From Dicyema japonicum (Eukaryota; Dicyemida; Rhombozoa; Dicyemidae), in contig RDEW01000009.1 of assembly GCA_011109175.1 (NCBI GenBank), positions 239,158-303,157 on the forward strand: a DNA stretch of 64,000 bases. Direction: 5' to 3'. Positions 10,930 through 64,000 of the stretch are shown here, in pieces. A model generated the notes under the pieces. The model was not told where the DNA came from. It did not search any database and was given only the letters and a program-made list of their open reading frames with translations. Made by a program: the position numbers and the translations under genes. Position 1 is the stretch's first letter; every line of letters begins with the position of its first letter.

Positions 10930-11250
10930 GAAAAAGAGTTACTTTTTCCCACATCCTCATTACGGGATGGACCAACAAGGGCGGTCTATGTCGATGCAAT
11001 GATGTCGAAGCAAATCCCGGTCATATAAGAAACGTTTAACTGAACATAAACAAAATGAAGAACAACGTTTTTTAACTTAGGAACTTAACGAAGAACTAAT
11101 GAATGATGTTCTCTCGTTACAGTCCAAACTCCGGAGCGGTAACGCAACAACAAGGTTCCCTGGATATTTGGTAATCAGTCGTGGTAGAAAAACTTTGCTG
11201 AAGCGTTCTAGCTATAATACTAAATGGGAATTCCTACAAGGCATCATCAC
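10930..11250 (+). mobile_element. LINE B 5' fragment with 2A-like motif and endonuclease start
   Basis: The frame from 10960 reads HILITGWTNKGG..NDVEANPGH and then, after a stop, LNINKMKNNV, the start of the endonuclease. After a frame change it gives LQSKLRSGNATTRFPGYLV, equivalent to IQESKLSTKSQPHFF in the long copy. The motif DVEANPGH at 11001-11024 is a degraded 2A-like sequence (final Pro replaced by His). Confidence 0.65.
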
Positions 11251-35587: not shown

Positions 35588-37755
35588 GGAAGGCATCTAG
35601 TTTGTCCATTACCGCTTCTGAGACACCCCAGGTTGCAGCGTTGTACATTAAAACTGGTTTCACGAAGGCATTGTATAGTCTCACACGTAATTGTATGCTA
35701 ATTTGTTCACGATGATTCCAGACTACTCCCATTTTTCTAAAGGCCGCGACGGCCAACATCTTCCTGTTAGTGATATCCTCAGCGTCTCCGAGCAACGACC
35801 CCAATTTTTTACAGTATCTCTATTTTTCATCAGTTCGGGTTAGTTCACGGCGTATGGTAGTTGTCTCCGTTTTTTCCGTAGTCGATATCATTGCATAAAT
35901 CACTTCAGTTTGAGGTAGATCGCCAATTAATAGTCTGAAGTCTCTGAGTGCCGCCTCCAGATATGTCACAAAAAGTACCGGTGACAAGGAATCTCCCTGC
36001 GGTACCCCGAACGTTGTCTCGAATGGAACAGACTCCAAATTTCCAAAACGTACACTTAGCTGCGTTGTTCCAAGTAATAGGCGGATCATTCTGACACTGT
36101 CCTTGTCAACCAATTCCAAGATATCCAAAAGTCTCCCTCTGTGTATAGAGTCAAAGGCTTTGGACATGTCCATGCCAAGGATGCTAATAGCCCCCTTGTA
36201 CTTTTGATGTGTTGCACAAAACCATCGATGTCCCAGACCAAATCAGCTGTAGATCTCCCTTACCTGAATCCGCTTTGACCGTGAGAGAGAAAGTTCTCGA
36301 TGTCAGATCCAATCCTGTTCAGCACTATAAGTGATAGTGTCTTGCGTAGAGTTGTCAATAGTACGATGGGTCTTAAATTCGTTAAGGGGCCTTTGCTTTG
36401 CTTGGTTTTTGTATTGCACTTAGTGTGCCATTACCCACATCCAGTGGTGAGTTGTATTTGAATGTTTTGTTGTATATCTCAGTTAATAGTTCAGAGATCT
36501 CGGTCGGTGCATATTTGAGAAGTTCTGCATTTATGTTGTCAGGGCCAGCAGCTCTATTGTTGTTCAGTTTGTCCAGGGCTTTTTTTGTTTCCAGAATCGT
36601 TATCGGAATATTTAGTTCTCGTGCTTCACCATCGAATTGTTTGATTTTTTCCCCGTGGTTTTGATTGAAGGCCTGCTGATAATGGCTGGATATGGCCGAT
36701 AGAATTTCATTTTTGTTTAACATAGTCTTTCCAAACTGATCATGTATTGTGATTTTTGATGACTGCGTGTCTCTATGTAGTAGGTGAACAGCCTTGAACA
36801 TCTGCGCTCCGTTTTTGAGTCTTTCTACTTCTTTAGCCATTCCAACAAGTTTATTTTCCTTTATTTCCCTCGTTCTTTTCTTTATTTTATACAGGGTTTG
36901 GTTCCGCATGACTCTTAGAGTGTGTTCCTTTGCCTGGTCCTGACAGGTTTCGACCTGTAAACGTAGGTTCCTCTGCAATTTGGATAGTTCTTCAAGCTCG
37001 TGGTCATAGTGCCCGTTGAAATGCTTCGGTTTTACTCCAACTGTTGAATGGGCCGCGCACTTTATTGCATCGATGGTGTCTTGCCACAGCTCCCCAGGCA
37101 TTTTTTCTTTATTCCACTGTCTGATCTTTTCTCTCAATGTATTTTGATAGCTTTCCCGAGTCGGTCCCACCATGCAGAGTTGCTCTACTGCGAACCTCCC
37201 CTCAGATATCCTCATGCCAGCCGCTTTGGAAACCCCAAAATATCGTTTGAAAAGGAAACGTGCCACAACCAATCTGTGATCACTATCTACTAGTGTCCCA
37301 CTGTAGCTCCGAGAATCTGTTAGCAGTGCCTTGTAGGCTTGTTTGCAGATAATGTAATCTATTTGGTTATATATAGGCTTGATAGTCCCAGATTTGTCCT
37401 TTCGGTAGCAGCTCCATGTCGTCTTATGTCTTGCTGAGTGCCTGAAAGCAGTATATAATAGTTTGAATGTATTGCAAAATTCGATAAGCGATTCTCCTGA
37501 ATGGTTCCTGATCCCCCTTCCATGGCTTCCCATGAATTCTTCGTGACTACTCCACGTCCTGCCTTTGCGTTCCAATCTCCGGCGATGTATGTCATGAACG
37601 ATGTTTCCAAAGATGCATATAGTTGCGACAGGGAGGAATAGAAGTCGTCTAGTTTCTCCATTGATTGATACTCTCACCGAAGTTGGTGCATATACATTAA
37701 TAATGGAGATTATGGGATTGTTCGTTTCACCGTATTTTAATTGTAAAACGGTTCC

Positions 37756-40296
37756 CATTCAAAATGGCCTCCGATCCATTCAAATTTTTTTCTCAGGTTT
37801 TGGATAAGTTCATCAATAGACATCACGAGATATTTTAGCAAAGTCCTCGACTTCTTTAGGTAAAAAAGTCATCTTTTTTAAATCTTATAAAAATTGATTT
37901 TAAGGGATCCTATGGGTAAGTGGAACATTTTAGCAAGGTCCTCGACTTCTTTAGGTAAAAAAGTCATCTTTTTTAATATTTTTATAAAAGTTTAAAATGA
38001 AATATTTATTTTCAATAGAAAAAAAGGAAAATGATTATAAATGTTAATAGAACACAAATTCTACTAAATTGAATATATATACTGTCGGATCCATATTAAA
38101 TAATATTTGTTCATGAACAAATCTCAATGTATTCTCAGATAAAGCGATATATTTTGTTTTTCTAAGAATTTTTTCTTCATTTTGTAATCTTAAGAAGTTA
38201 ATCATTATGCCTTCTTCTTCTATTACCAATTTCTTTACAAAATTTCTTGGCGTCTTCTTTAGTGTCCCAAATGTATTTCTAAAAACGTTGTGCCAGCCTT
38301 CAATTGAGTTATTTGTCCGAGGTAAGTCCTCATATATATTATCCAGATTATTCCAATAATTAATTGGAAATCTTGGAATAAATGCATTTTCTTGATTTCC
38401 ATATAATTGATCGAAAATATTGATATAATGGATTTAGAATCAGGAAAATCTGATCTCGACACTATACAATCAAAAGTGTTCTTCACAGAATGTGTAGGAA
38501 TAAAGGAGAGGCATTTCAACATTTTTACAAATCTATCGTTAATTTTAAATCACATTTAACATATTTATATCTTCATTATTAATGTCGTTAAAAATTCTAG
38601 TTGCAATATTTTTTTATTAATATTTTGTCCTAGATGGAACATTCAACAATTTATCCGTGCGTTTGGAAATGATTTTTGAAAAGAGTTTATTGCTCCTTTT
38701 TCAAAATCTGAGCCAATAACTCTTGGTTCTAAATCCGGAATGAGACGTTTGATTATTTGAAGCATTGTGTCATATTTATTTTCAGTTTTTGATGTTAAAA
38801 GACAGAATATTATTGGGATTACATTGTGATTAAATATTACATATATTATGAATAATTGCTTCCAAGGAAGAGGTGCAGACAGAAAAAGTCTCATCAATAG
38901 ACCATATTTTATGATTTTTTAATGGTGTCGTCATTTCAGAATTAAAAAAAAACCATATTTGTCTCAACATCTGATAAGTTAATCATTAATATACCAATAT
39001 TTCTGCGAAAACTGTGTCCAAACTGATAGAATCTATGTCCTCGTAAAGTATACATTAAATTCTCCTCAATATTAGAACTGAATCATACTTTCGTGTGGGA
39101 TACTTTTTCTTGTTCTATTAATCAGTTGTTCCAGAGAAGAATGAGTCCCTGTCAAAGCAATAGTTGTCAAATTTTGTCCAAGCAGAGAATTATTAATATC
39201 TGTCTAGGACCCATATCACATAAGAGTGATTTCTACCTTATGTCCTCCCGTATTAAGGCTCTCTTGACAAATTCACTCCTTGGAAGATGATTATGTTGCT
39301 TCAGACTCCAAACTTCATTACAGGATTGAATAGTTTTTACAGATCCAGGACAAGTACGATCTGAGCACCTCCAATATGTGATATGTCCCTTCCTGTATTT
39401 TAAATGATAAAGATTTCCATCATGTTCTAAACTTCTATTTCCCTTTTGGTTAACATAAACGGCATGCAATAGTGAATCAATTAATTAATTAAATTATTCA
39501 AAAGTTTTATTATAATAAAAGAAATTAAAAGAGACAATAACTTATTAAATTTAGTTTTAATAAAAATAATTAATTTTTATTCCAAAGTCAATTAGTATCT
39601 TAAAATCATAGGGTTTGGAGGACTTTGGTAAAATGTTCCGCTCACCCATAGGATCCCTTAAAATCAATTTTTATAAGATTTAAAAAAGATGACTTTTTTA
39701 CCTAAAGATGTCGAGGACCTTGGTAAAATGTTCCGCTCACCCATAGGACCTTAAAATCAATTTTTATAAGATTTAAAAAAGATGACTTTTTTACCTAAAG
39801 ATGTCGAGGACCTTGGTAAAATGTTCCACTTACCCATAGGACCTGTTAAAATCAATTTTTATAAGATTTAAAAAAGATGACTTTTTTACCTAAAGATGTC
39901 GAGGACCTTGGTAAAATGTTCCACTTACCCATAGGACCTCTTAAAATCAATTTTTATAAGATTTAAAAAAGATGACTTTTTTACCTAAAGATGTCGAGGA
40001 CCTTGGTAAAATGTTCCACTTACCCATAGGACCTGTTAAAATCAATTTTTATAAGATTTAAAAAAAGATGACTTTTTTACCTAAAGATGTCGAGGACCTT
40101 AGCAAAATGTTCCACTTACCCATAGGACTTCTTAAAATCAATTTTTATAAGATTTAAAAAAGATGACTTTTTTACCTAAAGATGTCGTTTCGCTAAAATC
40201 TCGTGATGTTTATTGATGAACTTACCCAAAACCTGAAAAAATTAATTGGAGGCCATTTTGAATGGAGGCCGTTTTGAAAGAGGCCATTTTGAATGG
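37756..40296 (-). mobile_element. MULE DNA transposon with FLYWCH finger and tandem-repeat inverted ends
   Basis: Minus-strand coding pieces in order: a FLYWCH-type finger (39469-39233: YRKGHITYWRCSDRTCPG, HNHLP), a MULE transposase core (38897-38643: APLPWKQLFIIYV, LLTSKTENKYDTM, IGSDFEKGAINSF) and the C-terminal hallmark RTNNSIEGWHN..RNTFG (about 38350-38260). Termini are inverted repeats beginning CATTCAAAATGGCCTC and CAGGTTTTGG. Subterminal units of about 97 bp occur nearly twice on the left and about six times on the right in opposite orientation. The frames are broken by stops. The target duplication cannot be resolved because the target CCATTTTGAATGG is near-palindromic. Confidence 0.8.
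39610..40190. repeat. six tandem ~97-bp subterminal repeats of the MULE
   Basis: Each unit reads CGAGGACCTTGGTAAAATGT..ACCCATAGGACC..AAAATCAATTTTTATAAG..GATGACTTTTTTACCTAAAGATGT. Units differ at only a few positions. The reverse-complement counterpart at 37810-37990 has less than two units, so the array expanded on one side. Confidence 0.85.
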
Positions 40297-44600: not shown

Positions 44601-45431
44601 ATGGCTCTGGACTTTAAATAAAATAATCTCATTGTTGAATTTAAATCAATATTAGAATTAATTAGGCATTAAAGTGGATAATGCTCTCTCAAATGTCTGC
44701 TTGGCAATTAGAGAATTCCTTTGTTTTTGTTTGTTGCTAAAGGAAACCAATTTGACAGAAAAACGTTAAGAAAATTATTTGTACTCAATACTAATTAGTT
44801 CAGAACAAGCAATAACTTCAAAATAAAATGGTAATTTGCTTCATGCTTAGTTTTAACATATCTTAGAGAAAAATTAAACACTATCTTAGAGAATATAATG
44901 AAAATATTGAATTTTCAATCATTAATTCCTAAAAAACACAACTTAAAAAATTGAATTTTCACTTCATTAGGAGACCCAAATCGCTTTTTTTCTTATCAGG
45001 TCTTTGATTAAAAAAAACACCCGAGAAGACGAGTTGCCGGTAGAACGCTCAAACATATAGTTGATTATTTATTTATAATATTTTTCTGTTTAAAAAACAC
45101 AACTGACTTTGAAGTGATGTAAATCTTAACAAATTTTAATTTTAACATTGATTATAAAAATAGGATTATAAAACCAATAGAATGGATTAAAATTGCAATT
45201 ATTTACAAAGAAAATTACAGATTTCGTCAATATTTTCTAAAAAGCTGCTTAAATCTACAGAAGCTAAAGTTAGGCAAATTTTTATGAAATTTCGTGTCAT
45301 TATCTAAAACGACTCATCAAATCATCATTCATTGATTATTTCATTGTTTTTGACTAATTGTCGTTATATTTTCATTAATATGATAAGTTACGTGTACTTA
45401 AATAACTTGACTACGGGGATTACTTAGTCTA
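44601..45431. other. AT-rich intergenic, upstream of cadherin
   Basis: No coding or repeat signal recognised. It should include the cadherin promoter. Confidence 0.4.
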
Positions 45432-47321
45432 ATGTATTTTCTATCTGTTTTGATGATGTGGACAAATTTTGGATTTAATATGCTATTTCTCTTGAATTTT
45501 ATGATACAAACTAAAAGTCAAGAATGCAAATTTTCGATTGGAGAAAAATTGGCGAAGGCGGGAGAAACTATTGGGAATGCATACGACTACATATCTGAGT
45601 CGAATTCTGGGGATAAAATTTTTTTCCAGTGGAAGGAGTCATGCAATGTATGTCTGTATTTCGACATCACGTCAAATGGAACAATTAAAACGACAAAAGA
45701 TTTGGACAGGAAAGATGGAATTTTACACAATTACTGCAAAAATGCAGAAATTTGCAGATTAAATTTATATTTTATTGCCGTTGTTTATAATGGAAACGTT
45801 ATGGAAAAAATAAATGTTGATATGTGCTTGTATTTAATTGATTCGAACGACAATCCACCTGTTATAGAATGGAATGGATTAGAAAAATATTTGAAACTAA
45901 GGGAAAACGACATCCCGAAAGATTCTTTAGGATATTTCATGGTGACTGATGCGGACGCCGGTAGAAACGCTGAAATTAGCTGTAAATCTAATACAAAGGA
46001 TTTTGTCATTGAAAGAAAAATTGCAAATGGACCTTTCATTCCTCAACAAATGTTTGATCTGTTTTATGTTGGTACTCATCCATTTGACTATGAGAAAATT
46101 CAAAGTGTCGAGGTTCACTACGAATGCACAGATAATGGCTTAAAACCTCTGAAGACTTCTGGGTTTGTGACCATTCATATCGAAGATGAAAACGACTGTT
46201 CCCCAAAATTTGAGAAAACTCATTATAGTTTATATATCCACGAAAACACCATTGTTAATATTAAAAACGCCGTTAAAGCGGTTGATTGCGATAAGACATT
46301 TCCTAATAATTATGTATCCTACCACGTGGACAAGTATTCAGATCTATTCCAAGTTAATGATGATGGAACGTTTGTTGTACTTCGAGAGTTGGATTTTGAA
46401 TATCATAAAAAATATGAATTTAAAATTTTTGCCTTTGACGGGGGTGTAATTCCAGATCGATTCTCAACCTCTGTAGTTTGTACAGTCTTTGTTATCGACG
46501 AAAATGACAACTGTCCTCGCTTTTTAAAAGGCCAATATTATTTCAAGATCAAAGAAAATCTTGCTAAATTGTCCACAGTCGGAAAAATAATGGCAATTGA
46601 CGTTGATTCGGGAATTAACGGAGAAATTTCTTATTTTATTGGAAAAACGCAATGTCCCAGTCATTTTTGGATTAATAGCCGTGATGGAACTCTGATCTTG
46701 AATAAGAACATTAATGCAAAGGATTTCCTTCGATGTTCCCTCACAGTTATTGCTCGTGATAAAGGGAAATCAAAAAAGTTGGAGACCTCAGTCGAAGTCA
46801 TCATTGATATTGAAGATGTCAATGATCATAAGCCAATAATTATTTCTCCGGTTGAAACTACATTTTTTATTCTGAATTTCACGCAAAATCAAATTATCAC
46901 TAAAATTCTGGCGGTCGATGGAGATGTGGGCCTGAATGCATTTTTGAGTTATGAATTAGTCGAAGGAGAGTACCTTGACTACTTTAAGATTAATAACCTA
47001 TCAGGTGACCTCATTCTTAATAGCTCGGTTATTCCTGGCAGAAATTCATTTTTAAAGATACAAGTGAAGGATAATGGCATTGAATCACAGCAAGAGACCT
47101 TCATCGTCCTAAACATGATCGTGAATGATGTAGAAAATTTAAGTTCAAGATCATCCATGAATAAAATCATTATCTTGGCGATGATACCGATTTTCCTACT
47201 TTGCTTGCTAATATTTTTCTGGATTCGAAAAAAATATAATAAAAATAGATTTTTTAAAAATTATGAAAATCAAATTTTATATTATCAAAATGGATTCACT
47301 AATAATAAATCCTCAGTATAA
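45432..47321 (+). CDS. cadherin-repeat membrane protein (protocadherin-like), intronless
   Basis: A single uninterrupted frame of 629 aa. Cadherin repeats mediate Ca2+-dependent homophilic adhesion at the cell surface. There is an N-terminal hydrophobic signal (about 1-30), then five repeats. Linker calcium motifs are DSNDNPP near residue 138, DENDCSPKF near 252, DENDNCPRF near 356 and DVNDHKP near 461. Internal DxD motifs are DADAG (172), DVDSG (389) and DGDVG (495). A transmembrane segment (IPIFLLCLLIFFWI, about 577-597) is followed by only about 32 cytoplasmic residues (Lys/Asn/Tyr-rich). There is no catenin-binding region, laminin-G or EGF module, so it is not a classical cadherin. The absence of introns contrasts with every other gene model in the window and could reflect an old retrocopy or ancestral protocadherin-style single exon. 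Confidence 0.9.
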   Translation: MYFLSVLMMWTNFGFNMLFLLNFMIQTKSQECKFSIGEKLAKAGETIGNAYDYISESNSGDKIFFQWKESCNVCLYFDITSNGTIKTTKDLDRKDGILHNYCKNAEICRLNLYFIAVVYNGNVMEKINVDMCLYLIDSNDNPPVIEWNGLEKYLKLRENDIPKDSLGYFMVTDADAGRNAEISCKSNTKDFVIERKIANGPFIPQQMFDLFYVGTHPFDYEKIQSVEVHYECTDNGLKPLKTSGFVTIHIEDENDCSPKFEKTHYSLYIHENTIVNIKNAVKAVDCDKTFPNNYVSYHVDKYSDLFQVNDDGTFVVLRELDFEYHKKYEFKIFAFDGGVIPDRFSTSVVCTVFVIDENDNCPRFLKGQYYFKIKENLAKLSTVGKIMAIDVDSGINGEISYFIGKTQCPSHFWINSRDGTLILNKNINAKDFLRCSLTVIARDKGKSKKLETSVEVIIDIEDVNDHKPIIISPVETTFFILNFTQNQIITKILAVDGDVGLNAFLSYELVEGEYLDYFKINNLSGDLILNSSVIPGRNSFLKIQVKDNGIESQQETFIVLNMIVNDVENLSSRSSMNKIIILAMIPIFLLCLLIFFWIRKKYNKNRFFKNYENQILYYQNGFTNNKSSV

Positions 47322-51202: not shown

Positions 51203-52157
51203 TTAGGACGACAGAATGGCGAAGGCGTTACCTCTGATAATCGCCATTTCGAGCCTCTGTTTCAACCAGAGTCCCTCCGTGGTCCTCACCTTTTTGAAGC
51301 TTCCAATGCTGTGGAGAATGGCTTCCGTCTTCGCGCCTAAAGTTCCAGTTGTCTCCACAGCAATGGGGGCAAAATGGTAATGGTCTCCGAGGGATTCGTA
51401 CTTATGGATCTTCTTGACCTCCGCCTGGTCGGCTGCGTCTCTAGGAGAGTGCGTCGCCGTCAGCAATCTGGCTCTTTAGAAGGTGTCCACACACGTTGCG
51501 TCCCAGACAAGTGATTTTCCGTGGGAGTATGGGAATAACGTCATTCCATCCGGCCTCTTCCCGTCGCCTCTGTCTAAGCCCAATGGTTCCAATTGGGCCG
51601 GAAATCCCGCAGCCTTGAGGGCTCGAAAGATGATGTCATTGAGGGCTGCGTGGCGCGGGGCTCGAACAGCACTTTGTCGGTAAGAGAGTGGATGTAATCC
51701 TTTCGTATCAACGTCTCCGCCGCAACGGCATTTGTGTCTCTGGCATATGTCCAGTTCTAGGCGCAGTGCCACCCGATCCTCAGGCTGTTTTTGTCAAGGA
51801 GGGTCCCAGATGTGGGCACGATAGAACCTCGAGCCAGACTCCATTTCCGCGATGTGCGGCCGACTTAATGCTTGCTAGTCGGTGTTGGTTGGCGCTTTTC
51901 TTCGCGGCCTCCAGAGTGCTCATACATGCGATTGAGTCCCAACTCTTCTGGCAAGCAAAGTTTGACGGGAATTCCAAGTCCTCTCCCCACACTTGCAAAC
52001 TCTGTTCAAGCTCCGAGTCCAAGGTATGTCCGGTTGCGTTACGTAGGACTGCTTGGGCCAAGCAACTACAGCTCGCAAGGGATGAAAAGTAGGCAGGCAG
52101 GGCGGCTTCAAGGGGGGATCTCAACCCAATGCCCCATTTCTCGCAGGTTGTTTTCAC
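51203..52157 (-). mobile_element. family C, nearly complete 3' domain
   Basis: Minus strand, from 52157: LASCSCLAQAVLRNATGH, AKKSANQHRLASIKSAA; then after a frameshift [67 protein letters not shown]; then after one stop HFAPIAVETTGTLGAK and RLEMAIIRGNAFA. It is the second-best preserved copy after the one at 17.3 kb and a different sub-family. Confidence 0.7.
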
Positions 52158-52194
52158 ATAGTCAAGCCCAGATCATCAAATTTGACATTCAGTA

Positions 52195-52520
52195 TTGACT
52201 CCGCCGATCGTCTCAGAGTCCCATCAGCCGACAATAGTGCATTCCGGTGTTCAAAACATGGTGAACATCTCAAGATGTACATCATCTTCGACAATTGAAA
52301 AAATTAGACTCCTAATCCTCACTGGGGATGTTGAACAGAACCCCAGGCCCCCAAAAAGAGGAAATTCCTCAATGTAATTCAATTCAACATAAACAGCCTT
52401 GCACACAAACCCACTGAATTTTTTGCCTTTCTCACCATTCATAAAATCGATTCCCTCCAACAAGAAACCAAACTATCCAGAAATCAATTCCTCTTTACTT
52501 CAAAGATTATTCAATCACTA
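52195..52520 (+). mobile_element. LINE B 5' end with 2A-like motif (truncated copy)
   Basis: A frame from the ATG at 52258 reads ..KIRLLILTGDVEQNPRPPKR and stops. In a shifted frame the endonuclease start NVIQFNINSLAHKPTEF and HKIDSLQQETKLSRN follows. The 2A-like motif DVEQNPRP (52327-52350) differs from the canonical NPGP by Gly to Arg, which should abolish recoding. The copy ends where the next LINE B begins. Confidence 0.65.
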
Positions 52521-52526
52521 ATTCTC

Positions 52527-55480
52527 GTGGCGTCATGTGGTTCACCTTTTGTGGTGGCGCTCAGTGTAATAATACACCAAAAAGAACCATTTGCTCTTCC
52601 CCATCCAGACTCTTTATGCCTGGATGGTATACCTCAACTGGAAACTCGAGATGTTGTTTGTTCCCCTGGATTCTATTGCTTTCTGGAGATATTGAACAAA
52701 ACCCCGGACCAAAACCCCTTGTTATTATGCAACTCAATGCTAACGGAATAAAAACAAAGATTCTGGAGTTACGATCTTTATTAACGAAGCACAAGATTGA
52801 CATCTGCCTTATCCAGGAGTCAAAACTTTCTACAAAGAGTCAACCCCACTTTTTCCTGGATACATCTCTATCAGAAAAGACCGCATTGGACGTGGTGGCG
52901 GCTTACTCACAATTATCAGAAACGGTCTATCCTTCCACGATGTAAGCTTGCAAGTGGATGATTTAATTCTACACGACAAGACCGCGGAACAAATTTCTAT
53001 TGATCTTATTAATGGGTCAGAACATCTTATTCTAATCAACATTTACATTCCACCGCCGGGATCCTGTCCTAATAACTATGTTCCGAAGCTCGACAAACTA
53101 CAAGAAATTCGAAATGTGTTACTATGTGGGGATTTCAACGCCAAACATCCGCAATGGCTTAGTACCCAGTCGGCAGACAAGAGGGGGAGTCTAATTATCG
53201 ACTCTCTCGAAAAAATGGTGATTCTGAATCACCCGAATGTGTTCACAAGGACACCTATCCGAAGAAATGACAACCCAACCTCCCCCGACATATCCATTGC
53301 TTCCTCTAGGATTGCCCCGAAGATTTCATGGAACGTCTCCTACGATTTTCATAGTGATCATAATCCGATTATATTAAAACTGAGCCGATTCAATAACTCG
53401 CGTAGAATTAAAGCAACCTTCAAGGTCTACAAGAAAGCTGACTGGTCGAATTTCAAGCTCTTCATTGACAATAACCTAATACACTTTGATCCCACCTCAT
53501 TTTGCTCCATCGACAAAGCAGTGGACCATCTAAACCATGTAATCCTTCAAGCTGAAAAGTTGTTTGTACCACGTGCAGTTTAAATCCTACAAGCCTACTC
53601 TGGACTCGGAGACTCGTCTCCTCATCAAACAAAGAAACTCCCTGAAGATGAATCATCTGCAAACCTCTTCTGATTTGCAAAATATAAAATGCTTAAATCA
53701 GAGAATTACAAAGCTCATCAGAGAAAAGAAAGATAGGGCGTGGAAGCGCCTATTATCATCTATTGGACATATGAAATCCACGAGTCTTTTATGGAAAACT
53801 ATTCGTCGAATCAAGCTAAACTTATCAGATGAATCAGAATCTTTTTCTGCTCCAAATACTGTGCAAGCTAACAACCTAATGAAATATTACGCATCCATAA
53901 GCCACAAGGACTTCTCGAAATCCCATTCTTGTCACTTTCGGAATTTAGTGCCTAAACCAACTTCATGGATCAATCTGTTTACGCATGCCGAGGTCACACA
54001 GGCTATAAGATCGATGAAGAGATCTTTTACGTGTGGACCTGACGGCATCCGGGAATTTTGTTAAAACACCTTGGTAATGCTGCAATCAATTCAATTACGT
54101 CAATTTTTAATTTGTCTTCTAACATGAACGTCATCCCATGCAAATGGAAAAACTCACTTATAATACCGATCCTTAAACCAGGAAAACCGAAAACCTTACC
54201 TTCTTCCTACCGTCCAATTTCATTAACGTGCGCATTATCGCGCCTAATGGAGAAACTCGTACTCTGGAAAATTAAACCCCATTTGCCCGACTGCCACTTT
54301 CAACATGGTTTCAAATGTGAGCGTTCAACTACGACACATTTGACTTCACTGTCTCAATTTATATCAGAAGGGTTCAACGTACCGAAACGCCATCTACGGA
54401 CAATAATGGTTTCCCTGGATATCCAGAAGGCGTTCGATTCTGTCTCGAGAATATTACTCACGAAGAAGGTTTTTGACACCACCATTCAGACGGATTTGAA
54501 AAGATGGATAGCCAATTTTCTCTCCGGAAGAAGAGGACGTGTCTGTATAGGCCACGCAAGATCGAGGTCCCGTCTCCTACCAAATGGCGTCCCTCAAGGA
54601 TCGCCCCTCTCTCCGGCATTATTCAACTTGTTCCTCAACGATTTACCCTGCCCTGGAGGACCAGATTCAATGCTTCTCACTTATGCTGACGACCTAATCA
54701 TCGCTAGCAGGAACAAATACGTGGGTACAGCAAAATCAGAGCTTCAGTCACATATTGACGACCTGGGAGCCTGGTTGAAGTTGAATCGTCTCTCCGTATC
54801 CAGGGACAAATCAACATATACAATTTCACCACGGACAGAAAAGAAAAACATACACTGATTTGAACATTTTTGGAGACTCCTTACCACTACAGACTCGTCC
54901 AACTATCCTGGGAGTGACATTTGACCCTTTGATGTCATTTTCTCAACATGTGAAGAACGTTATGACAAAGGGTCTCAGGAAACTTAATATATCAAACCGC
55001 TCTTGAAGTCCAAACCTTCACAGGAATGCGCCCTCGTCGTGTTCAATCAACTCCTAAAACCGACGATTGAGTACGCCTGTGCCTCATGGGCCTATGGAGC
55101 TTCGATATCAAATTCACTCAAGATCAATACCCTAATTGGAAAACTAGCACGTCAAAAATCTACCCCCGATCTTTTCCCTCCAATGCTTGACCACGCCGCA
55201 ATCAAAAATAATGGCTCCGGCTTCATCTGTCTGTGTGGCCAAGAAACAAGTCGTTTCTTCCATTCAAGGCTGAAGGCTTCAAATACACGAAATTTGGGGA
55301 AAAACCCCACTCCTCTTCAAACCTAATGAAAGATGATCGTCGTTTATTCAGGAAAGCCGTGGGTACTCTGGAGGAACACAGGAAAAACCTCTCGATCCTG
55401 TTGAGGCGTACCGGGATCACTTAATTAGTTGGATTACTCCTTCTTTCTTGGTGTTCCCTTTTCGGGGTTATTAAATAAAT
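52527..55480 (+). mobile_element. LINE B, longest copy: 2A-like leader, APE endonuclease, RT
   Basis: The first frame (ATG 52535) has a 50-residue leader rich in Cys and hydrophobics, then SGDIEQNPGP fused to the endonuclease start VIMQLNANGIKTKI..DICLIQESKL. After a frameshift near 52940: LILINIYIPPPGS, LLCGDFNAKHPQW, DFHSDHNPIIL. Further frames hold a linker, GPDGIRE, SYRPISLTCALSRLMEKLV, FQHGFKCERSTTTHL, VSLDIQKAFDSVSR, GVPQGSPLSPALFNLFLNDL, LTYADDLIIAS and ILGVTFDPLMSFSQHV. The tail is CGGGATCACTTAATTAGTTG..CTTGGTGTTCCCTTTTCGGGG-TTATTAAATAAATAAAT. It is jockey/CR1-like. At least four frameshifts inactivate it, but the catalytic YADD is intact. Confidence 0.85.
52688..52711 (+). other. 2A-like ribosome-skipping motif (DIEQNPGP)
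   Basis: DIEQNPGP matches the D-x-E-x-N-P-G-P consensus of 2A and 2A-like peptides, which make the ribosome skip the last Gly-Pro bond. It is in frame between a hydrophobic leader of about 50 residues and the endonuclease of LINE B. Degraded versions in the same position occur at 11001-11024 and 52327-52350. Similar motifs are known from other APE-type LINEs. Activity here is inferred. Confidence 0.8.
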
Positions 55481-55489
55481 AAATAATAA

Positions 55490-56170
55490 ATAAATAAAAA
55501 TTATTCAATTTCCCACCATAACCTATCTAATTCAAACATGAGAAACGCTATACTCATCCTTATACATAAGACTATTCCTTTTTGTGATACTTCTAATCGG
55601 ACACAAGCTCTCATTGAAAGTGACAATAACATTAAACTTACTTCCATCCTTGTCAATCACACCACTTGGTCCCTGTATGAAAAAATATTCCTCAAACTGA
55701 CTGAATTAAACAAAATTCAAAATGTCATAATCTGCGGAGACCTAAACTCCAAAAATCCACTTTGGCTAACCAGAAGATCCTATCTCAACTTGAAAAACTA
55801 GTCATCCTCAATGACAAAAATTCCCACATTCGAAAACTCAAGTACTTCTCCAGACCTCTTTTTATGTTCTCCGTCGCTATCTTTTGCGATATCCTGAAAA
55901 GTTATATTTGACCTCTATTCTGACCATAACCCGATTCTTTTTCAATCGGGATACTCTCGCCTATTATTAGTCATCGGAAAACCATAATAAATTACAAACT
56001 TGCAAAAAAATCGCTTTCCGATTTTCCGCTGAAAATTTCAAATCGTTTGATACCGCATTGAAATTTTTAATGAGGTTATCCTCAATGCCGACAAGAAACA
56101 TAGTCCAAGAGGAATCATTGCAAACTATAATCCAAATTTATCTAAGGAAATTATAGAAAAGATTTATAAA
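55490..56170 (+). mobile_element. LINE B-like endonuclease fragment
   Basis: The frame at 55538-55801 gives MRNAILILIHKTIPF and NVIICGDLNSKNPLW. A shifted frame gives LEKLVILNDKNSH and DLYSDHNPILF, the last endonuclease motif (SDH). It is divergent from the copy just upstream and so a separate, older insertion. Confidence 0.6.
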
Positions 56171-62494: not shown

Positions 62495-64000
62495 TTAATA
62501 GCACTTCCGCGTTGCCATAAGCACGTAAAATGCCTAGGGGCTCGCTCGTGCCGTACACTCGACTATCCTCCCAGTCAACCCTCTCCATCTAGCTCTGTTT
62601 CTCTCGCGTTTACAAATATCCTCAAGATCGTCTCCAGTTTGAGTTGACCGCCAATTTGTGCGTAATCGTTGTTAAGGCAGAGGGGAAGCGTACATCTTGG
62701 CCGACCCCGAAATCCAATTCCATGATTTGAATAGTAATCTTTTATGATTTGATTGCAAGGAATCACTTCGTCTATTCTCAGAACATGTCCGAAAAGTCGC
62801 CAGCGTGAGGTAATTACTTCTCTGCTCATTAGTTTGCATTTACATAATTTGTAGAGAGTGTCGTTTTTGATAATCTGGCCATTTGATTCCCGCAATTTTT
62901 CTCAATTGATATCCATGAAATGTGTCTAGTCTGTCAAGGTCAGTTTTTGAAGTTCCCCATGTTCCCGAGTTATATAATAGGACTGGTTGTATGAACGCGT
63001 TATATAAGCGCATCCGAAGATTTAAGGAGATAAGTTTTCTGCGAGTCCAAATACTCAACATCTTTTTCAGTGCACACGATGCCAACATCTTTCTACGAGC
63101 AATGTCTTCAGCATCACCCAAAAACGAGCCGAGCCTTTTAGTAAACGTCCATTTCTCATCAATCCGTGTCGATAACCGCTGAATCGAAGTTAACTCTGTT
63201 TTTTCTGAATTGATCTTTAAAGACCATTTCTCCAGAACCGTTGTGGCTTTATCTACTGCAGTTCTTAGTACCTCCACATCCTCAGACACAAAATCGATGT
63301 CATCAGCATATATTAATTCCACAAAATGATTATTTAAGTGACCCAATTCTTTTCTAACGTCCCTCAACGCAGCTTCCAAATAGATTGCAAAGAGAACTGG
63401 AAAAAGCGAGTTCCCTTGAGGAGTACCAATCCCAGTCGTGAATTTTTCCGAATAGCCCTTCCCCACTTTTACTATGAGGCTCGTGTAAGCCAGCAAAAAA
63501 CGCACAATCCTCAAACAGTCCTCATCAATTATGTCATTGAGTAGTTGCAGTAGTTTATCTCGGCAGACAAAGTCGAATGGTTTCGATAAGCCGACTCCCA
63601 GAATATACATTGTTTTTCTGTACTTCTGACATATTGCCGTAAGCCACCGATGACTCCATACTATATCAGCGGTCGATCTTCCTGGTCCGAATCCGCTTTG
63701 ACTTAGTGAAAAGTATTGGTCAACTGAATTTGATATTCGATTCAATGTTGTAATCGACAATGTTTTTCGCAAAGTGGTCAAAATCACGATCGGCCTAAGA
63801 TTTTCAATCGGACCTGCAGTTTTGCCATGTTTTTGTAAAAGAAGTAGAACTCCCATCGCGATGTCAATTGAACAATGAGTCCTGAATATCTCGTTGAATA
63901 TAAAAGTCATCTTTTCTGCTAGCTGGGTTGGTGCGTATTTTAACAACTCTACACAAATATTTTCATAGTCAGCTGTCGTTGTTATTCCGGCGAATGAGTG
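62495..64000 (-). mobile_element. LINE A, long copy with intact RT, runs off the window
   Basis: The minus frame 63946-62840 (368 codons) is open across the RT: IENLRPIVILTTLRKTLS, QSGFGPGRSTADIVWSHRWL, GIGTPQGNSLFPVLFAIYLE, LIYADDIDFVSED, KLEKWSLKINSEKTELTSI-type block, GSFLGDAEDIARRKMLA and LLYNSGTWGTSKTDLDRLD. A frameshift near 62880 separates the C-terminal part (SRWRLFGHVLRIDEVIPCN). The 3' end is AACGCGGAAGTGCTATTAAC followed by AACT repeats. The frame is still open at the window edge. GLSKPFD replaces the usual D-x-S-KAFD catalytic Asp, so this copy is probably inactive. Confidence 0.85.

What the first reader, a model, noticed from the sequence alone, without database searches (positions are those of the whole stretch)
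52258..52711. 2A-like ribosome-skipping peptides at the start of LINE B
Three copies have D-V/I-E-x-N-P-(G/R)-(P/H) at the same place, directly before the endonuclease: DIEQNPGP (52688), DVEQNPRP (52327) and DVEANPGH (11001). The best copy fits the active consensus and follows a hydrophobic Cys-rich leader of about 50 residues, so translation could release a small leader peptide and a separate polyprotein. 2A-like motifs are known in some APE-type LINEs. A leader of this kind could act as a targeting signal, as proposed for some animal 2A sequences.
Basis: partly seen in the sequence, partly recalled or inferred. Interest (0 to 1): 0.75.

Follow-up and report, generated by a model that had tools for sequence, protein, structure and literature searches.

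The report
Ribozyme-encoded leader with 2A in LINEs
A jumping gene in what is probably the genome of a tiny octopus parasite starts with an RNA that looks like a self-cutting ribozyme; its protein appears to begin inside that RNA, and a known ribosome-skipping signal may then separate the odd leader from the enzyme part.

Summary
The 2A-like motif is real. WILLLSGDIEQNPGP (52667-52711) sits in frame just before the APE-type endonuclease of a LINE (LINE B, insert 52516-55499). 19 of 28 LINE B loci that hold the region keep DIEQNPGP, including the window copy and its nine best matches. Six related LINE families in the same genome have it at the same place. That part is known biology (2A in APE-type LINEs).

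Two corrections. The 52327 motif belongs to another, E-like LINE that LINE B jumped into; 11001 is an old relic. And the leader does not look like a targeting signal: its first ~18 codons are also the RNA of a conserved HDV-ribozyme-like pseudoknot fold at the element's 5' end, with the start codon in its J1/2 linker. P1 and P4 change sequence between families but stay paired.

Best reading: translation starts inside the ribozyme-like RNA, and 2A frees the endonuclease-RT polyprotein from a leader shaped by RNA folding. Skipping and RNA cleavage are untested, and Rfam has no above-threshold match. One nested family (K) has apparently lost 2A, so 2A is not indispensable.

The parts
52516..55499 (+). 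LINE B insertion: 5' RNA fold, leader, 2A, endonuclease, RT, (TAAA)n-type tail; reading frame broken in this copy
   Evidence: target-site duplication and 3' tail read from sequence; Pfam; homologous copies
52506..52515 (+). 5' target-site duplication ATTATTCAAT
55500..55509 (+). 3' target-site duplication ATTATTCAAT
52529..52534 (+). P1 5' strand GGCGUC (predicted cleavage 5' of 52529); pairs with 52556-52561
52535..52537 (+). AUG in the J1/2 linker: predicted start codon of the leader-2A-EN-RT frame
   Evidence: only Met of the open leader in families C, D, H
52538..52543 (+). P2 5' strand UGGUUC; pairs with 52584-52589
   Evidence: change on both sides in F (UGGCUC/GAGCCA) and in one D copy (UGGUCC/GGACC)
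52544..52555 (+). P3 ACC/GGU with L3 UUUUGU
52556..52561 (+). P1 3' strand GGCGCU
52564..52577 (+). P4 hairpin GUGUA/UACAC
   Evidence: LINE B: 0.5% of shuffles do as well
52578..52583 (+). J4/2 CAAAAA; C at 52578 takes the place of the catalytic C (CNRA)
   Evidence: weak on its own,
52584..52589 (+). P2 3' strand GAACCA; read across by the leader codons K-R-T
52535..52687 (+). leader, 51 codons; the first ~18 overlap the RNA fold
52670..52711 (+). 2A core ILLLSGDIEQNPGP (preceded by W); predicted skip between G (ends 52708) and P (52709-52711)
52727..53583 (+). APE-type endonuclease (Exo_endo_phos_2), in two frames in this copy; start approximate
54043..54858 (+). reverse transcriptase fragment (RVT_1, 4.4e-33)
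52327..52350 (+). decayed 2A (DVEQNPRP) of a different, E-like LINE that hosts the LINE B insertion
55496..55857 (+). continuation of that E-like LINE's endonuclease after the insertion (match ends as reported by tblastn)
11001..11024 (+). relic 2A (DVEANPGH) of an old member of the same LINE clade

Best explanation
LINE B is an APE-type non-LTR retrotransposon, read here as having a single ORF. Its RNA begins with a compact HDV-ribozyme-like nested pseudoknot. The start codon of the ORF is the J1/2 linker of that fold, so the first ~18 residues of the protein (MWFT...KRT) are constrained by RNA pairing. About 50 codons on, a canonical 2A (ILLLSGDIEQNPG|P) makes the ribosome skip the Gly-Pro bond, releasing a 58-residue leader and a separate Pro-initiated endonuclease-RT protein. 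Shown by sequence: motif, position, retention in close copies, several families, paired and covarying RNA fold, open frame from AUG to 2A in at least one copy of each of seven families. Inferred: use of that AUG, skipping, RNA self-cleavage, and that the 2A serves to strip off the RNA-constrained leader.
For: 2A: strict D(V/I)ExNPGP with a hydrophobic tract before it, as described in PMC4981915; 74 genome matches against 0 for the reversed pattern; LINE B 19 of 28 intact, among them the window copy and its nine best matches, the nine losses mostly differing from copy to copy (two share an I-to-N change); same position in families C, D, E, F, G, H. Of 65 protein relatives, 12 have D(V/I)E.NPG (7) or G(V/I)E.NPGP (5) within their first 105 residues. 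RT-core tree: 13 rows, 11 of them with 2A or the G-form, group apart from four without (95/96, midpoint root). RNA fold: pattern AUGUGGUUCACC..AGAACCA 128 matches, reversed control 0; own-family P1 arms pair better than exchanged ones (49 of 100000 permutations reach the sum for 12 families; 40 of 40320 for 8); 54 of 66 copies have at least 5 of 6 P1 pairs, against 0, 1, 0, 0 when slid by -1, +1, +2, +3 (but 14 and 34 at -2 and -3); P4 hairpins of 11 families together beat all of 2000 shuffles; one sub-threshold Rfam match (HDV-F-prausnitzii, 20.4 bits, cut-off 44, E 1.1) in the register drawn by hand. Start: J1/2 AUG to 2A in frame and open in 21 of 37 copies, at least one in each of 7 families.
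Against: No assay of skipping or cleavage. Rfam gave no HDV match in window 52000-53000, in the other 7 loci, or in 10 more loci, 7 of them family E. The nested-only fold of the 5' end is no better than shuffles (z 0.25). Copies of B, C, D, F, I, J, K and L share several nt upstream of P1, so their templates were not made by a cut exactly at P1; only E, G and H lack such a shared stretch (beyond A or AA in E). The J4/2 CNRA is in 61 of 66 copies, but shuffled A-rich 9-mers show it 41% of the time, so it is modest support; all 5 G copies lack it. P4 alone is not significant in D, E, G and L. P1 is poor in J, in 4 of 5 I copies, and in M. P2 was part of the pattern that picked the copies, so its pairing is not independent evidence, and 3 of 5 G copies break one P2 pair. 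L3 is unlike the matched model in C, F, G and K. Families K and L keep fold and AUG but show no 2A. In F the AUG is out of frame with 2A in 2 of 3 copies; in E only 1 of 6 copies is in frame and open.
Confidence: 0.66

Rival explanations
1. The leader is a targeting (signal) sequence and 2A partitions the polyprotein between compartments, as for sea-urchin NLR 2A peptides.
For: PMC4981915 shows that an N-terminal 2A can do this. If translation began at the second in-frame Met of LINE B (residue 28), CCLFPWILLL would lie in a short N-terminal peptide. The one open F leader has a hydrophobic run at residues 25-35 (KD 2.2).
Against: From the conserved AUG there is no N-terminal hydrophobic core in B, C, D, E, H; C has no hydrophobic run at all (max KD11 0.75) and no second Met; leaders are basic and unlike each other apart from a shared stretch in E and G. 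Hydropathy only; no signal-peptide predictor was available.
Confidence: 0.07
2. The 5' fold is an RNA element but not a self-cleaving ribozyme: an internal promoter, translation enhancer or RT/template recognition structure that shares the pseudoknot topology. 2A works as above.
For: Inherited nucleotides upstream of P1 in B, C, D, F, I, J, K, L; no match above Rfam's cut-off; CNRA only modestly above chance and absent in G. L1Tc's 5' end is both promoter and ribozyme (PMC4748587 passages).
Against: E, G and H start at or next to P1; the sub-threshold Rfam match on E is in register; R2 ribozymes also cut away from the element's end (PMC3774820 passages).
Confidence: 0.32
3. The 2A is a vestige: no skipping, and leader and endonuclease stay fused.
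For: K has no motif and still spread; one F copy with a 1037-residue open frame reads NTGP.
Against: Motif kept in the window copy and its nine best matches and in seven families; three other F copies read NPGP.
Confidence: 0.1
4. The motif is a chance peptide in decayed repeats.
For: The window copies are broken; two of three have a spoiled motif.
Against: 0 in 100 Markov windows; 74 against 0 in the genome.
Confidence: 0.01

Closest known systems
2A-like (StopGo) sequences of APE-type non-LTR retrotransposons (Odon et al. 2013; seen only as an entry in a reference list; paper not held)
   Same: D(V/I)ExNPGP after a hydrophobic tract in an APE-type LINE
   Different: here the endonuclease follows 2A directly, whereas relatives P0001-P0006 have a Cys-rich, zinc-finger-like stretch (by eye) after it; the leader is encoded across a 5' RNA fold
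L1Tc of Trypanosoma cruzi (HDV-like ribozyme in the first 77 nt plus active 2A; PMC4748587 passages)
   Same: both modules in one LINE; short relatives share the 5' fold
   Different: probably an animal LINE clade; the predicted AUG sits inside the fold, whereas a passage of PMC4035085 speaks of L1Tc's fold as 5' UTR; several sequence-divergent families in one genome
R2 HDV-like ribozymes (PMC3774820 passages)
   Same: HDV-like fold at a LINE 5' end, ~7-nt P1, variable cleavage position
   Different: APE-type LINE, not rDNA-specific; no above-threshold Rfam match; overlap with coding sequence
Sea-urchin NLR 2A signal sequences (PMC4981915; abstract, introduction and first part of results read)
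   Same: N-terminal 2A
   Different: leader is not signal-like in five of seven families tested; downstream protein is an endonuclease-RT

Membership tests
2A / StopGo peptides | C-terminal D(V/I)ExNPGP | tested here: met
2A / StopGo peptides | suitable upstream hydrophobic context, in frame | tested here: met
   WILLLSG in frame with the leader
2A / StopGo peptides | measured Gly-Pro skipping | not testable with these tools
   needs a translation assay
APE-type non-LTR retrotransposon | APE-like endonuclease plus RT, 3' tail, target-site duplication | tested here: met
   Exo_endo_phos_2 and RVT_1; duplication and tail
HDV-like ribozyme | order P1-J1/2-P2-P3-P1'-P4-J4/2-P2' with helices paired | tested here: met
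   54 of 66 copies with at least 5 of 6 P1 pairs (J and most I copies poor); P4 of 11 families together 0 of 2000 shuffles
HDV-like ribozyme | J4/2 C-N-R-A with catalytic C (motif recalled) | tested here: inconclusive
   61 of 66, none of 5 in G; 41% in shuffled 9-mers
HDV-like ribozyme | match to a curated covariance model | tested here: not met
   none above cut-off; one sub-threshold hit on E in the right register
HDV-like ribozyme | P1.1 and L3 core | tested here: inconclusive
   by eye, L3 of E and H (UUCACGU, UUCUCGU) resembles the matched Rfam model; C, F, G, K deviate; P1.1 not tested
HDV-like ribozyme | self-cleavage 5' of P1 | not testable with these tools
   5' termini fit in E, G, H and not in B, C, D, F, I, J, K, L
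2A signal sequences (SpNLR2A type) | N-terminal hydrophobic signal-like region | tested here: not met
   hydropathy from the conserved AUG in B (and C, D, E, H); F is an exception

The most novel reading that the evidence does not exclude
A dual-code arrangement in animal LINEs: an HDV-like ribozyme doubles as the start of the ORF (AUG in J1/2), and a 2A placed just downstream removes the ribozyme-constrained leader from the enzyme, so that RNA-fold evolution and protein evolution are uncoupled. The family without 2A (K) is a natural test of what the 2A is for.
Probability: 0.4. Interest if true: 0.78.

Novelty: new variant of a known kind. Interest (0 to 1): 0.6.

Why it matters
Why LINEs carry 2A near their N-terminus is, as far as I know, unexplained. 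If translation starts inside a folded ribozyme, the leader is an unavoidable by-product and 2A a neat way to shed it: a concrete, testable reason. The genome offers seven 2A-bearing families, relatives with the fold but no 2A, and short relatives with the fold only, which allows comparative and reporter tests. The only precedent met here with both modules is L1Tc of trypanosomes.

Tried and rejected
Signal-peptide reading: dropped after hydropathy across families, with F as an exception. 'Three copies of LINE B': dropped. Nested minimum-free-energy fold of the 5' end: no signal, as could be expected of a pseudoknot. Rfam on a window stretch, 8 loci and 10 loci: no ribozyme match above cut-off; the single sub-threshold HDV match was not repeated in 7 other family E loci. 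Endonuclease tree: unresolved; an RT-core tree was used instead (D, E and L have no row there, P0011 dropped for lack of the anchor). Host by 18S rRNA: the search did not complete. A MAFFT call with one wrongly oriented row was useless. The first look at LINE B 5' ends left minus-strand loci unturned and seemed to show copies without the motif; redone.

Selection to tell: one search was given 70 hand-chosen loci with a recognisable 5' end out of 104 loci held then; 5'-truncated, decayed and some redundant copies were left out. 67 gave a fold, three did not match the pattern (L027, L045, L055); one search left out M (L102), hence 66. The pattern itself demands listed P2 forms, and L072-L104 were found by a P2 pattern. 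L3 length was set per family by eye; one search does not depend on that choice, though its one copy per family was chosen by me. L069 and L070 have near-identical flanks and may be one insertion duplicated. One search used all 30 LINE B loci; one search scored 40 of 165 candidates and gave loci for 30.

Full report
WHAT WAS CHECKED. One hundred order-2 Markov versions of the window contain none, relaxed or strict. The genome that holds the window (64.67 Mb, 191 contigs; window = contig C181) has 74 matches to a DNA pattern for GD(x)EQNPGP and none to the same pattern read backwards.

WHAT IT IS. LINE B is an insertion from 52516 to 55499 with a 10-bp target-site duplication (52506-52515, 55500-55509), an APE-type endonuclease and an RT, and a (TAAA)-type tail. 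It sits inside another LINE, an E-like one, whose own decayed 2A is the 52327 motif; family E endonuclease matches lie at 52413-52493 and 55496-55857, on either side of the insertion. The 11001 motif is an old relic of the clade (tblastn 2e-5 in a 1.6-kb stretch). The window copy of LINE B is broken; its endonuclease changes frame.

2A IN LINE B AND ITS RELATIVES. Of the 30 LINE B loci fetched (which scored 40 of 165 candidates), 28 hold the 2A region and 19 of those keep DIEQNPGP. The window copy and the nine loci that match it best (L009-L018) all keep it; the nine losses mostly differ from copy to copy, two sharing an I-to-N change. Six further families in the same genome have 2A at the same place: C (GDVEQNPGP; open frames of 1030 and 931 residues), D, E, F (DVETNPGP in three copies; one copy, L041, with a 1037-residue open frame, reads NTGP), G (GDIELNPGP) and H. 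A search with a family C protein gave 65 relatives; 12 have, within their first 105 residues, D(V/I)E.NPG (7) or G(V/I)E.NPGP (5). The abstract start of PMC6249498 in a search listing reports skipping by a GxExNPGP motif, so the G-form need not be dead. In an RT-core tree 13 rows group apart from four relatives without 2A (95/96, midpoint root); 11 of the 13 have 2A or the G-form, the other two being K and P0007, whose N-terminus looks cut. So 2A is probably old in this clade, and LINE B is a new member of a known kind in that respect.

THE LEADER IS RIBOZYME-LIKE RNA. The 5' ends of these families share an arrangement: P1 - AUG - P2 - P3 - L3 - P3' - P1' - P4 hairpin - J4/2 - P2'. In LINE B this runs from 52529 to 52589. 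A pattern for P2/P3 and P2' has 128 matches in the genome and none for the reversed control. P1 differs between families yet pairs in the best copies: GGCGUC/GGCGCU (B), GGCGUC/GGCGCC (one D copy), AUUUUC/GAAAAU (E), AUCGUC/GACGAU (H), GGCGUU/AACGCC (three of six K copies), AAUGAC/GUCAUU (one G copy; the other four have 5 of 6 pairs), GGUGUC/GUCACC with one mismatch (F); C has 4-5 of 6, I 3-6, J 4. Own-family P1 arms pair better than arms exchanged between families: 49 of 100000 permutations reach the observed sum for 12 families, 40 of 40320 for the 8 LINE families. In 66 copies of 11 families, 54 have at least 5 of 6 P1 pairs; sliding the 3' strand gives 0, 1, 0 and 0 of 66 at -1, +1, +2, +3, but 14 and 34 at -2 and -3, probably because of the GGTGGCGC repeat. 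P4 hairpins, one copy from each of 11 families, together beat all of 2000 shuffles; singly D, E, G and L do not reach 5%. P2 changes on both sides in F (UGGCUC/GAGCCA), but P2 was part of the selection pattern and 3 of 5 G copies break one pair. J4/2 has C-N-R-A in 61 of 66 copies, all but the five of G; shuffled A-rich 9-mers have it in 41%, so this is modest support. Rfam's only HDV match, sub-threshold (20.4 bits, cut-off 44, E 1.1), falls on a family E copy in the register drawn by hand; it was not seen in seven other E loci or in window 52000-53000. J1/2 is 3-4 nt; passages of PMC4908430 report no activity without a spacer there and place cleavage at the first nucleotide of P1.

HOW THE TWO FIT. 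The AUG of J1/2 is in frame with the 2A, with no stop between, in 21 of 37 copies that have both, at least one in each of seven families (B 6 of 11, C 5 of 7, D 2 of 3, E 1 of 6, F 1 of 3, G 5 of 5 with the AUG at the start of P1, H 1 of 2). In the open leaders of C, D and H it is the only Met (one C copy, L040, has a second Met just before the 2A motif). The recurring ends MWFT and KRT of the leader's first third come from the two strands of P2. The rest of the leader differs between families, except for a shared IERARSF stretch in E and G; one leader per family was scored: all are basic (+3 to +7); B, C, D, E and H have no N-terminal hydrophobic core, G a weak one, F one at residues 25-35. 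The simplest reading is that translation starts inside the fold and that 2A separates a leader constrained by RNA structure from the enzyme. A passage read here says HDV-like ribozymes may help translation of LINE mRNAs (citing Ruminski et al. 2011, not read).

RESULTS AGAINST. Families K and L have fold, AUG and an endonuclease frame but no 2A in the copies read; K nests with B, F and C in the RT tree (98/94), so it most likely lost 2A. Copies of B, C, D, F, I, J, K and L share nucleotides upstream of P1, which a template cut at P1 would lack; E, G and H begin at or next to P1. Passages of PMC3774820 show that R2 ribozymes can cut away from the element's end, but that does not by itself explain inherited upstream bases. 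L3 departs from the matched model in C, F, G and K. No activity has been measured.

HOST. The cadherin-like ORF at 45411-47321 matches one protein far better than the other 119 listed (of 453): a 'CELSR1-like' entry of Octopus sinensis (45% identity, 589 bits; next 259). Dicyema japonicum was collected from Octopus sinensis and has a genome of 65-67.5 Mb with 36.7% G+C (PMC6736024 passages); the window averages about 36.4%. I infer a dicyemid, the octopus entry being parasite DNA; this is not proven.

LITERATURE. 2A in non-LTR retrotransposons is known (PMC4981915 introduction; Odon et al. 2013 not held). L1Tc carries both an HDV-like ribozyme and an active 2A (PMC4748587 passages). A search of the held library for papers with both 'HDV-like ribozyme' and '2A-like' found none; it missed L1Tc, which is worded otherwise, and covers open-licence papers only, so it says little about novelty.

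VERDICT. Motif confirmed; ordinary by itself. The overlap of a probable HDV-like fold, start codon and 2A-terminated leader, spread over several LINE families, is the part worth pursuing.

Noticed in passing
L072-L080 and L081-L082 (about 300 bp each): Two sets of short stretches (I, J) carry the same 5' fold but no endonuclease frame in the ~200 bp read after it; they look like internally deleted, non-autonomous relatives, comparable to SIDE/SIDER elements.
   Followed up: partly
L043, L047 and L096, just upstream of the E-type 5' end: Three family E copies carry a second ribozyme-like 5' fragment (..GATTCACCATCTC) directly upstream of their own 5' end, as if the RT had jumped between templates or one such chimera had spread.
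   Followed up: no
L001/L021, upstream of the LINE B 5' end: The flank reads as the reverse complement of the LINE B 3' end, so two LINE B pieces lie head to head.
   Followed up: no
window 45411-47321 +: Cadherin-like ORF whose best relative by far is an Octopus sinensis entry; points to a dicyemid host and to parasite DNA in an octopus assembly.
   Followed up: partly
window 62840-64000 -: RT-bearing ORF of another LINE (RVT_1 2.4e-23); no 2A motif was found near it in the window.
   Followed up: no
L041 about 1272: A family F copy with a 1037-residue open frame reads DVETNTGP where three other copies read DVETNPGP; its sequence upstream of the fold's 3' half differs from theirs.
   Followed up: partly
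window 36382-37758 -: 458-residue open frame without a Pfam match that reads, by eye, like a LINE endonuclease-to-RT stretch.
   Followed up: no
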